Shown here one piece after another: positions 16,530-64,000 of a stretch of DNA of 64,000 nucleotides. Within the stretch, counting starts at the first letter, position 1. Each line of letters opens with the position of its first letter. The stretch lies in assembly GCF_019891175.1 (NCBI RefSeq), contig NZ_CP072600.1:4340001-4404000 (forward strand), read 5' to 3'. The position numbers were made by a program, and so were the translations under genes. This DNA is from Leptothermofonsia sichuanensis E412 (GTDB lineage Bacteria; Cyanobacteriota; Cyanobacteriia; Leptolyngbyales; Leptolyngbyaceae). Under the pieces are notes generated by a model. It was not told the DNA's origin. It made no database searches and was given only the letters and a program-made list of their open reading frames with translations.

Positions 16530-17156
16530 ATGGTAAGCAAAGTCCCCCTGAATATTCAAACGTGCAGTCAGGTTGCTGAAGTGTCCCCTCCGGTTGCCAG
16601 CCTGGGAACCAATCCCTCCCATCTCAACCACGACTATGCCGAGGCAGATATCCTGCGCCTTTCTACCTTTTTCAGGAGCAACCCCAATCCTATCCTGGTA
16701 TTCAGCCCGGATGGCAACGTGGTAAAGACAAATCCGGCAGCAGTACGAATGCTCAAGCGGTTGCACATGGGTGAATTGGATCTATTACCGGAGGATCATG
16801 CCCAGATTGTGCAGTCATGCCTGGATGGCCGGATGCGAGAGTATGCGATCGAAGTCAACACCCACAATCGTGTATTTGCGTTGACCTATCACCCCCTCCC
16901 TGCCTTCAAGCTGGTCTATCTATACGCGATTGAAATCACCGAATTCAGACGGGCAGAGGAAGACCTGTTACGGATGGTTGCCAGTACGCTGACCCTGGCA
17001 AAGCAGGCAGTTCTACGCTTGCAAGCATTTCGTAAAACGCCGCCCCAATCAGTCAAGCCATCTCACCAGCAAACGGACCTTTCTGAGATGTTTGTGGCCA
17101 TGGATGGTTGTGTCTTTACATCCAGTAATCGTTTCGGTGAGTGGGACCTGGACTAG
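16530..17156 (+). CDS. PAS-domain protein
   Basis: 208 residues. Residues 40-145 fit a PAS sensor fold: LSTFFRSNPNPILVFSPDG, VKTNPAAVRMLKRL, then ALTYHPLPAFKLVYLYAIEI and TEFRRAEEDLLRM, the usual PAS-to-helix exit. No output domain (kinase, GGDEF, HTH) follows, so it may act by protein-protein contact or be a truncated kinase. The stop TAG falls exactly at the edge of a 94 bp MITE: its TA is the target dinucleotide. The sequence across the other MITE edge (TA then G) would also give TAG, so the pre-insertion gene probably ended at the same place. Confidence 0.8.
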   Translation: MVSKVPLNIQTCSQVAEVSPPVASLGTNPSHLNHDYAEADILRLSTFFRSNPNPILVFSPDGNVVKTNPAAVRMLKRLHMGELDLLPEDHAQIVQSCLDGRMREYAIEVNTHNRVFALTYHPLPAFKLVYLYAIEITEFRRAEEDLLRMVASTLTLAKQAVLRLQAFRKTPPQSVKPSHQQTDLSEMFVAMDGCVFTSSNRFGEWDLD

Positions 17157-17249
17157 TGGTTCGTCAACCTTGTAATTGTGAGTCTGGGGTCAGAAAAAGG
17201 TTATTATTTTGTGGGTTTTAAACCCCCAAAATAATTCTCGATAGACCAT
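17156..17249 (-). mobile_element. MITE of the IS630 (62.3 kb) type
   Basis: 94 bp between TA dinucleotides at 17154-17155 and 17250-17251. Ends read GTGGTTCGTCAACCTTG and, on the other strand, ATGGTCTATCGAGAATTATT. Read in reverse it aligns along its whole length with the element at 24245-24337. It carries no gene. It sits on the stop codon of the PAS gene. Confidence 0.8.
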
Positions 17250-24195: not shown

Positions 24196-24244
24196 CATCT
24201 CCCCTTCTGCCTTGAATATCGCCTCTCTCCGTCAAATAAAGCTA
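24179..24244 (+). pseudogene. RelE/ParE-type toxin, truncated by a MITE
   Basis: Starts MIFRVDISPSALNIASLRQI, the usual opening strand and helix of ParE/RelE toxins, overlapping the antitoxin end by 17 bases as in intact operons. After 22 codons the frame enters the MITE at 24245 and soon stops. No toxin continuation is seen beyond the element. Confidence 0.7.
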
Positions 24245-24337
24245 GTGGTCTGTCAAGAATTATTTTGTGGGTTGAAAATCCGAAAATAATAACTTCTTCC
24301 TGATTCCAGACTCACAAATACAAAGTTGACAAACCAC
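24245..24337 (+). mobile_element. MITE of the IS630 (62.3 kb) type
   Basis: 93 bp between TA duplications at 24243-24244 and 24338-24339, context CTAG on both sides. Left end GTGGTCTGTCAAGAATTA, right end (minus strand) GTGGTTTGTCAACTTTG. Best-preserved copy of the family. It carries no gene. Confidence 0.9.
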
Positions 24338-24373
24338 TAGTGGCGATCGTATTTAGCTTAATTCAGTGCCCGA

Positions 24374-31759: not shown

Positions 31760-31920
31760 GAGTTAGAAAGAGAGGGGAAGGTAAAGGAGATCCCAGGGAT
31801 CTGGGCTGTCAGGTTACCAATTGAGTCTATTGTTTGTCAGAAAAAATTGACAAAAGAGTCCCCCGCCCTTAGCAACAGGGAACTCGCCTGGGAATAAAGC
31901 AATGAAGCAGAGTACCGGTA

Positions 31921-32026
31921 GTCTGTTAAGAATTATTTTGCGGGTTGAAAGCCTCAAAATAAGAATCTCTTTCCATAAGAATCTCTTTCCTATCCCAGAC
32001 TCACCTATACAAAGCTGGAAAACCAC
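31921..32026 (+). mobile_element. MITE of the IS630 (62.3 kb) type, longer variant
   Basis: 106 bp between TA at 31919-31920 and 32027-32028. The left end is shortened (GTCTGTTAAGAATTATTTTG); the right end matches CAAAGCTGGAAAACCAC. An internal unit ATAAGAATCTCTTTCC is duplicated in tandem, explaining the extra length. Its right TA is in the stop codon of the next gene. Confidence 0.75.
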
Positions 32027-38476: not shown

Positions 38477-38495
38477 GTGGTCTGTCAAGCATTCT
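38477..38495 (+). repeat. Solo end of the IS630-type MITE
   Basis: CTAG followed by GTGGTCTGTCAAGCATTC, the left terminal repeat of the MITE family, with no matching right end. Lies 22 bases before the ftsI start, so it may have supplied part of its leader. Confidence 0.6.
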
Positions 38496-62057: not shown

Positions 62058-62366
62058 TCCCCTCAGTACAGGACAAAACTTGTCAATTGAGGCACACAGA
62101 GGGTTGAAAACTTAGGCGGGAAGGGGTTTCCTAGGAATAACAACAAACCAACGAGACCCCCATGCAACAGATTACCGAATTTCGCCAAGTTTTGCAGCCC
62201 CTCCTCGGTTGGCATGGTGCGCGGCTGGCATTTGTGGCTCAATTTCTGATCGCCCTGCTACGAACCCGTACGGTGAATCTGAGCGAATTGGCTGCTAGTA
62301 GTCTGTCAACTTTGTTTTGATGGATAGATTAGGGGAGAATGGAGAGGCAGATACCTCTTACCAACC

Positions 62367-62843
62367 ATGCCCCAAAAGAGATACATCGTAGCCCTTAGCT
62401 GTGAAGAGCGGGAGACTTTAGAAAGTCTGACAACAACCGGAAAAACATCCGTTTATAAACTCAATCATGCTCGAATTTTGCTGAAAGCTGACATCAACCA
62501 GGAAGGCGGCGGTTGGCGGGATCAAGATATCAGTGATGCACTCGATATTAGGGTATCTACGATTGAACGAGTCCGGCAACGCTTTGTTGCACAGAGTTTA
62601 GAGGCTGCCTTAGGGCGTCAAACTCCAAGTCGAACCAAGCCCCGCTTACTCGATGGCGAACAAGAAGCGCATTTGATTGCGCTGGCGTGTGCCGAGACTC
62701 CTGAAGGACAAGGGAAATGGAGCGTTCGCCTGTTAGCAGACCAACTGGTTGAGTTGGGATATGTAGAGAGCATTTCGCATGAAACCGTGCGGCAAACGCT
62801 GAAAAAAACGAACTCAAACCCTGGTTGCAGGAATGCTGGGTAA
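62367..62843 (+). CDS. IS630 transposase, N-terminal frame
   Basis: 158 residues: QKRYIVALSCEERETLESLT, the helix-turn-helix DQDISDALDIRVSTIERVRQ and the winged region LLADQLVELGYVESISHETV. At CTGAAAAAAACG (about 62800) a minus-one shift would continue as KKNELKPWLQECWVIPPKSN into the catalytic frame, as expected for this family. Confidence 0.88.
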   Translation: MPQKRYIVALSCEERETLESLTTTGKTSVYKLNHARILLKADINQEGGGWRDQDISDALDIRVSTIERVRQRFVAQSLEAALGRQTPSRTKPRLLDGEQEAHLIALACAETPEGQGKWSVRLLADQLVELGYVESISHETVRQTLKKTNSNPGCRNAG

Positions 62844-63503
62844 TTCCGCCGAAGTCCAATGGCGAGTTTGTTTACTACATGGAAGATGTTTTGAGCGTTT
62901 ATACACGCCCTTATGACCCGCGCTACCCGGTCGTTTGTTTCGATGAAACCAGCAAACAATTAGTCCTCGAAACGCAAGTTCCCCTCCCCCCAACCCGGTC
63001 AACCGAAGCGCTATGACTATGAATATGAACGCAATGGGGTCTGTAATCTCTTCATGATTTCTGAACCCTTAGCTGGATGGCGGCATGTAGAAGTCACTGA
63101 ACGGCGCACCAAACAAGACTATGCCAAACAAATGAAATATCTGGTGGATGTGCGTTACCCCGATGCCGAATGGATTACCATCGTGCATGACCAACTCAAT
63201 ATTCATGACCCATCTGCCTTGTATGAGACGTTTGCACCTCAAGAAGCCAAGCGGATTCTAGACAAATTAGAGATTCATTACACACCAAAACATGGCAGTT
63301 GGCTTAACATGGCAGAAATTGAACTCAGTGTTTTAGCCCGTCAGTGCTTGGATCGTCGCATCCCAGATCAAGATACGTTGAAACGGGAAATTGCTGCTTG
63401 GGAAGAACGCAGAAATGATCAATCTCGCACCATTGATTGGCAATTTACGACTGAAGATGCTCGCATCAAACTTAAGCGACTCTATCCCTCAATTCTTTCT
63501 TGA
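62825..63503 (+). pseudogene. IS630 transposase catalytic part with an extra frameshift
   Basis: Frame two reads PPKSNGEFVYYMEDVLSVYT, YPVVCFDETSKQLV (first Asp) up to VPLPP; there the run of C residues (CCCCTCCCCCCAACCC, 62981-62997) shifts the frame. Correctly read, it goes on as PGQPKRYDYEYERNGVCNLF, then the zero frame ATG 63054 continues: WITIVHDQLNIHDPSALYET (second Asp), HGSWLNMAEIELSVLARQCL (Glu). The second shift is not of the usual programmed type, so either it inactivates this copy or it is a sequencing error. Confidence 0.82.
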
Positions 63504-64000
63504 CAAGCTACTAGCTTTTGTGGTTCCGCCCAAATTCCGTCGAACTACAAGCGTCTCCAGCGCTTCTTTAGCGACTTTGATCTCGATTATGCGGCGATTG
63601 CCCGTGCCGTGGTCTGCCTGATGGGGATCCCGCAGCCTTGGGTGCTCGCCATAGACCGCACCGAATGGAGCTTTGGCGGTAGCGTTTTCAACATTCTCAC
63701 CCTGGGCATTTGCCATCAGGGTATTTCCTTTCCGGTGGTGTTTCTGATGCTGGACAACCGCGGCAATTCCAACACCCAAGAGCGCATCGATTTGCTCAAC
63801 GAATTCTTCACGATTTTTGGCGAGGATGTCCGCCTGCGGTGCCTGACGAGCGACCGCGAATTTGTTGGGCGGGAGTGGATTGGCTATTTGCTCGAAGATG
63901 AGCCAATCCCGTTTCGGGGGCGGATTCGCGAAACTGAAACGCTCAGTGATGGCAGCAAAGCCCTGAATGGCCGCGTCCTCTTTGCCGATCTCAAAGCGGG

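What the first reader, a model, noticed from the sequence alone, without database searches (positions are those of the whole stretch)
62298..63511. An IS630 element whose two ends separately match the two ends of a resident MITE family
The left end of the 1214 bp element (GTAGTCTGTCAACTTTGTTT) matches one MITE end (GTGGTTTGTCAACTTTGTAT, on the minus strand at 24337), and its right end (GTAGCTTGTCAAGAAAGAA) matches the other (GTGGTCTGTCAAGAATTA at 24245). MITEs at 24245-24337, 17156-17249 and 31921-32026, plus a solo end at 38477, all sit next to TA. End-specific matching, not just a shared terminal repeat, points to derivation by internal deletion or to cross-mobilisation by this transposase.
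Basis: partly seen in the sequence, partly recalled or inferred. Interest (0 to 1): 0.62.

Follow-up and report, generated by a model that had tools for sequence, protein, structure and literature searches.

The report
Jumping gene shares ends with MITEs
A cyanobacterial jumping gene (an IS630 insertion sequence) has ends and insertion sites that fit two families of tiny non-coding jumping sequences in the same genome, so it is their most plausible mover, but the tiny elements are older, spread more widely and are not shrunken copies of it: an ordinary kind of relationship with one unusual detail, a conserved hairpin at one end of the tiny elements.

Summary
Window 62298-63511 is an IS630-family element of 1214 bp, flanked by TA within CTAG, with at least 29 near-identical full-length copies in the genome. 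The MITE at 24245-24337 (family M1) has about 98 end matches genome-wide.

No other IS630 subfamily found in the genome has matching ends. The IS and a second, recently active MITE family (M2, 107 bp, about 65 copies) insert at the same CTAG sites with TA duplication, so movement of MITEs in trans is plausible. Derivation of M1 by internal deletion of this IS is not supported: M1's interior has no similarity to the IS, M1 copies differ by 16.5% while IS copies differ by under 1%, and M1 or M2 occur in genomes where this transposase was not found. The end-specific match is real but weak: clear for one end (CTTTGT plus inner box), only GAA at the other (P about 0.02; not significant for M2).

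M1 and M2 belong to one MITE superfamily, spread through cyanobacteria, whose 'B' end carries a 9+5 bp hairpin with strong covariation: the more unusual feature. Closest precedents: RUP with IS630-Spn1, Nezha with ISNpu3.

The parts
62296..62297 (.). Left TA target duplication (within CTAG 62295-62298)
   Evidence: copy-free site in host paralogues
62298..63511 (+). IS630-family element, 1214 bp between the TA duplications, C6 variant of the internal C tract
   Evidence: NF033545 IS630 transposase
62298..62325 (+). IS left end: outer box GTAGTCTGTCAA, spacer CTTTGTTT, inner box TTGATGGAT
   Evidence: same layout in relatives L221, L222, L224, L358
62367..62843 (+). Transposase ORF A (158 aa; helix-turn-helix)
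   Evidence: PF13565
62802..62808 (+). A7 tract, likely -1 frameshift site joining ORF A to ORF B; conserved in relatives of 77-94% identity
62825..63503 (+). Transposase ORF B (DDE domain); broken in this copy by the short C tract
   Evidence: intact 240-aa frame in C8 copies
62981..62991 (+). CCCCTCCCCCC tract, C6/C7/C8 among copies; only C8 keeps ORF B open
63484..63511 (-). IS right end: outer box GTAGCTTGTCAA, spacer GAAAGAA, inner box TTGAGGGAT
63512..63513 (.). Right TA target duplication
24245..24337 (+). MITE family M1, best copy in the window; B end at left (24245), A end at right (24337, minus strand); TA at 24243-24244 and 24338-24339
24259..24290 (+). B-end hairpin position of M1 (9 bp + 1-nt bulge + 5 bp, 3-nt loop in the family consensus; imperfect in this copy)
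17156..17249 (-). MITE family M1, A end at left, TA on both sides
31918..32026 (+).
38477..38488 (+). Solo MITE-type end (TAGTGGTCTGTCAA with its TA), no partner end found

Best explanation
The element is a recently amplified IS630-family insertion sequence that targets CTAG and duplicates TA. Its transposase probably recognises a bipartite end (outer box TAGTNNTCTGTCA, inner box TTGAYGG about 22 bp in). The resident MITEs M1 and M2 carry ends of the same CTAG-targeting IS630 group and are type II MITEs: their interiors come from elsewhere. They were not made by internal deletion of this IS; they belong to an older cyanobacterial MITE superfamily whose B end is fused to a conserved hairpin. 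The IS transposase, made by the few copies with an intact frame, most likely moves M2 in trans today, and it or an earlier relative moved M1 in the past. Shown: copy numbers, CTAG/TA insertion, shared target sites, lack of interior similarity, age difference, wider distribution, hairpin covariation. Inferred: trans-mobilisation itself.
For: IS: at least 29 near-identical full-length copies, DDE_3/IS630 models, A7 frameshift site conserved. Precise copy-free sites for IS and M2 at CTAG; IS copy L004 and an M2 copy occupy the same CTAG of one host family, IS copy L026 and another M2 copy the same CTAG of a second family. No other IS630 subfamily found in the genome with these ends. M1 interior against IS: score reached by 21% of shuffles. 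Mean pairwise difference M1 16.5%, M2 6.4% (median 3.7%); IS copies differ at a handful of sites. M1/M2 in relatives, decoupled from the IS. Hairpin covariation 0.387 against 0.161 +/- 0.017 in shuffles and at most 0.146 when slid. ISY100, another IS630 of a cyanobacterium, moves with 30 bp of each end and its transposase protects the 24-bp repeat (PMC2170065), so ends of this length suffice.
Against: M2, the MITE that moved recently, has subterminal sequences that match the IS less well than M1 does, and its end-specific signal is not significant. The same-genus genome G001 has many M2 copies (nine of nine scored candidates, 188 candidates in all) and no detectable transposase of this type, so some other transposase may have done the work there (or it was lost or not assembled; G001 has 380 contigs). 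Most IS copies have a broken ORF B, so transposase supply is limited to about five full copies.
Confidence: 0.62

Rival explanations
1. M1 arose by internal deletion of this IS or a near-identical ancestor (type I MITE).
For: A end matches IS left end through CTTTGT and TTTG; B end shares GAA with the right end; profile test puts A ends with left ends and B ends with right ends in 46 of 46 M1 copies, though these copies are not independent.
Against: No similarity beyond about 25 bp at either end; interior scores like shuffles. The hairpin that forms the B side is absent from the IS and shared with M2 and MITEs of many genera. Signal over composition shuffles only P about 0.02.
Confidence: 0.12
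2. The MITEs were moved by a now-lost or unsampled IS630 relative with TAGTGGT/TAGTGTT ends, and the present IS is a later arrival that does not act on them.
For: MITEs carry TAGTGGT or TAGTGTT, the IS TAGTAGT; other IS630s elsewhere carry TAGTGGT (L227, L249, L389) or TAGTGTT (L224) ends. MITEs without the IS in G001, G010, G057. M1 is much older than the IS burst.
Against: No such element was found in this complete genome, yet M2 moved into host elements that are themselves recent, at 100% identical copy-free sites; the IS is the only compatible transposase found.
Confidence: 0.24
3. The resemblance is coincidence or general IS630 end similarity.
For: B-end match no better than to many IS630 ends.
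Against: 229 against 9 pattern matches genome-wide; the other IS630 subfamilies in the genome whose ends could be determined have quite different ends; identical CTAG sites used.
Confidence: 0.02

Closest known systems
RUP (107 bp) and IS630-Spn1 of Streptococcus pneumoniae
   Same: MITE of about 100 bp with ends like a resident IS630 element, TA target, about 100 copies, insertions into other IS elements, trans-mobilisation proposed from end similarity (PMC2229807, PMC3049150)
   Different: Different host and sequences; here two MITE families, CTAG preference, a covarying hairpin fused to one end, and genomes with the MITE but without the IS
Nezha and ISNpu3-like elements in cyanobacteria (Zhou et al. 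2008, cited in PMC3049150)
   Same: Cyanobacterial MITE proposed to be moved by a resident IS with similar ends
ISY100 (Synechocystis, IS630/Tc1/mariner)
   Same: IS630 transposase needing only short end repeats, TA duplication (PMC2170065)
   Different: 24-bp repeats; not compared in sequence here
Type II MITEs of Anabaena sp. 90
   Same: Cyanobacterial MITEs whose interiors do not come from a resident IS, mostly intergenic, structured (PMC3542288)
   Different: There no IS with similar repeats was found in the genome

Membership tests
IS630 family | DDE_3 / IS630 transposase | tested here: met
   PF13358 E 6e-16; NF033545 139.9 bits against cut-off 100 for the C8 frame
IS630 family | TA target duplication | tested here: met
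   copy-free sites at 100% identity
IS630 family | terminal inverted repeats | tested here: met
   TAGTAGTCTGTCAA and TAGTAGCTTGTCAA
IS630 family | two-frame transposase with -1 frameshift (some members) | tested here: inconclusive
   A7 tract and frame change conserved in relatives; frameshifting itself not tested
MITE | short, non-coding, terminal inverted repeats, target duplication, many copies | tested here: met
   M1 97 bp with TAs, 98 end matches; M2 107 bp, 65 matches, CTAG on both sides in 30 of 38 copies
Type I MITE (internal deletion derivative) of this IS | interior continues to match the parent IS | tested here: not met
   interior score within shuffles
MITE moved in trans by this IS (RUP-like pair) | ends similar to those of the resident IS | tested here: met
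   core 11-13 of 14 and A-end subterminal match; no rival subfamily with such ends found
MITE moved in trans by this IS (RUP-like pair) | transposase acts on the MITE ends | not testable with these tools
   needs binding or transposition assay
Nezha | sequence identity to the Nezha consensus | not tested
   paper and sequence not held

The most novel reading that the evidence does not exclude
The hairpin at the B end of these MITEs (9 bp, one unpaired base, 5 bp, three-base loop, mostly GAA or GCA) is a functional part of a superfamily of IS630-dependent MITEs across cyanobacteria: its 5' arm overlaps the presumed transposase inner box and its 3' arm is an inverted copy of it, kept paired by compensating changes, and acts as a second transposase site, a cruciform signal or an RNA element. 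Related: insertions of the IS and of M1 next to M2 are at the hairpin end in 11 cases and at the other end in none.
Probability: 0.3. Interest if true: 0.6.

Novelty: new member of a known kind. Interest (0 to 1): 0.36.

Why it matters
Claims that an IS moves a MITE usually rest on end similarity alone. Here one closed genome holds the IS (most copies with a broken transposase frame), a recently active MITE family and an older one, all using CTAG, which makes trans-mobilisation directly testable. The covarying hairpin at one end would, if functional, help explain why these MITEs are asymmetric and why they are widespread without their IS.

Tried and rejected
A better-matching IS630 in the genome: searched by DDE_3 (150 loci), ends of the main groups read, none; three single-copy or fragmentary groups had only automatic end calls. 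Copy-free orthologous site for the window MITE in relatives: synteny with the same-genus genome begins 34 bp to the right of the MITE, the left side is not orthologous, so inconclusive. Copy-free site for M1 among held loci: the only hit was a tandem M1 copy. An IS with M1- or M2-like ends in G001, G057, G010: none among 16 DDE_3 loci. Known RNA family for the MITEs: no Rfam match. Terminator-like placement of the hairpin: no clear orientation or convergent-gene bias, from a rough ORF scan only. Composite M2-IS transposition: rejected, because several M2 neighbours differ in sequence and every junction has different outer flanks. An M1 insertion inside a gene, to test by protein: no convincing case. 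M1 and M2 samples were partly gathered by patterns on their B halves, so conservation along those alignments is biased and was not used as evidence. The C-tract differences could be sequencing errors; reads were not available.

Full report
The element. Window 62298-63511 is a 1214-bp insertion sequence with TA at both ends, inside CTAG. ORF A (158 aa) has a helix-turn-helix domain and ORF B a DDE_3 domain; NCBI's IS630 model passes its cut-off with the C8 frame (139.9 against 100 bits). ORF A and ORF B are joined by a -1 step at CTGAAAAAAAC, conserved in relatives of 77-94% identity; I infer a programmed frameshift. A C tract in ORF B is C6, C7 or C8 in different copies (14, 6 and 7 of 28 scored); only C8 keeps the frame, two of the seven C8 copies carry a further 10-bp insertion, so about five full-length copies are intact. 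The window copy (C6) is broken. The genome holds at least 29 full-length copies that differ at only a few sites. The window copy interrupts an IS4-family element whose uninterrupted copies show the CTAG site with a single TA at 100% identity over 122 bp.

The MITEs. Full copies differ from each other by 16.5% on average and many flanking TAs have decayed. A second family, M2 (107 bp), absent from the window, has 65 matches, a median pairwise difference of 3.7% and CTAG on both sides in 30 of 38 copies. One 99% copy sits in a genome of another genus (G015), which suggests recent transfer.

Do the ends match end for end? All four MITE ends and both IS ends share the core TAGTRKYYYGTCA. Read against 22 IS630 relatives, the layout is general for this CTAG group: outer box, about 7-8 bp of spacer, inner box TTGAYGG. 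In the subterminal 16 bp, M1's A end matches the IS left end and its orthologues best (11 of 16; next best unrelated 10), while M1's B end matches the IS right end 9 of 16, no better than many others. A left/right profile test scores the A end as more left-like than the B end in 46 of 46 M1 copies and in 20 of 24 related MITEs of other genomes, but copies share descent; against composition shuffles of the consensus P is about 0.02 for M1 and 0.12-0.20 for M2.

Another IS630 with better ends: 150 DDE_3 loci, at least eight subfamilies, with ends such as TATACCTTGTCAGGG, TATAGCCCTACG, TTACAGC, TAAGTAG, ATACCAATTTAAATGG and TAGTGCAG; none resembles the MITEs. Matching beyond the repeat: it stops at about 25 bp, and the interior scores like shuffled sequence. 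Copy-free sites: the automatic scan gave five for the IS and four for M2, of which L001, L004 and L026 for the IS and L195 and L206 for M2 are unambiguous, 100% over 82 bp; IS copy L004 and M2 copy L206 use the same CTAG in one multi-copy IS630 host, and IS copy L026 and M2 copy L195 the same CTAG in another. These hosts are multi-copy and CTAG is rare (68 in the window against 250 expected from base composition), so repeated hits on one CTAG are not surprising, but they show the same target specificity and recent M2 movement. For M1 no clean copy-free site was found.

Distribution. Among 97 genomes, M1 relatives are in 14 including the own genome and M2 relatives in 17. The IS at about 90% is in only G009 and G017, one copy each. 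G001 (same genus), G010 and G057 have MITEs but no transposase of this type, and none of their 16 DDE_3 loci has such ends. G001, G010 and G057 are draft assemblies of 380-550 contigs, in which IS copies are easily lost, so absence is not certain.

The unexpected part. M1 and M2 share their B side: TAGTGKTCYGTCARGAA followed by a hairpin of 9 bp, one unpaired base, 5 bp and a three-base loop, in the same columns. Over 29 MITEs from own and related genomes, 87.9% of cells pair (73.2% in shuffles), 12 of 14 pairs have changes on both sides, covariation 0.387 against 0.161 +/- 0.017 in shuffles and at most 0.146 when slid. The structure was read from these sequences, which favours it over the slid versions, and related sequences inflate the shuffle test; yet two-sided exchanges at columns 18-20, 24-25 and 31 with their partners are numerous. 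Template switching between hairpin arms can also keep arms complementary without selection; the conserved one-base asymmetry speaks mildly against it, and copies with an inverted hairpin core (for example L345) show that such events occur. No Rfam family matches. The 5' arm coincides with the inner box, so the 3' arm is an inverted copy of it; a second transposase site is one inferred role. Elements next to M2 (IS, M1) abut its hairpin end in 11 cases and its other end in none, leaving M2-M2 junctions aside; the sample is small.

Conclusion. Cross-mobilisation of MITEs by an IS630 of this type is the best reading, as for RUP with IS630-Spn1 (PMC2229807, PMC3049150), with this IS the only candidate found in the genome. 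Internal deletion of this IS is not supported. The kind of relationship is known; the hairpin-bearing B end across genera is the feature worth following.

Noticed in passing
window 62981-62991 and 28 other full IS copies: C tract of 6, 7 or 8 in the transposase gene; most copies are out of frame yet nearly identical otherwise, so broken copies were either moved in trans or mutated after insertion (or sequencing error).
   Followed up: partly
L006, L007, L012, L018, L019, L027: IS copies inserted exactly at the CTAG of M2's hairpin end, six cases with different outer flanks, five with the IS left end adjacent; none at M2's other end.
   Followed up: partly
L329 (genome G015): A single M2 copy 99% identical in a genome of another genus, suggesting recent horizontal transfer.
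   Followed up: no
G047:C3:114936-115204: Three M2-type elements head to tail at 105-bp spacing.
   Followed up: no
whole genome: About 150 IS630-type loci in at least eight subfamilies in a 6.4-Mb closed genome, two of them with some 30-40 copies each.
   Followed up: partly
L073, 1500 onward: A further possible MITE with the same core at both ends, TAGTGGTCTGTCAATCTTAATTTTGCGC...AAGATTGACAAACCAGTA.
   Followed up: no
flanks of M1, M2 and IS copies: Two other repeats, ending ...GGTTATTTTCGGCAACCTGCA and ...ATCCGATTTCTGTACCGGCGTT before CTAG, recur as insertion sites of M1 and M2 (the first also of the IS).
   Followed up: partly
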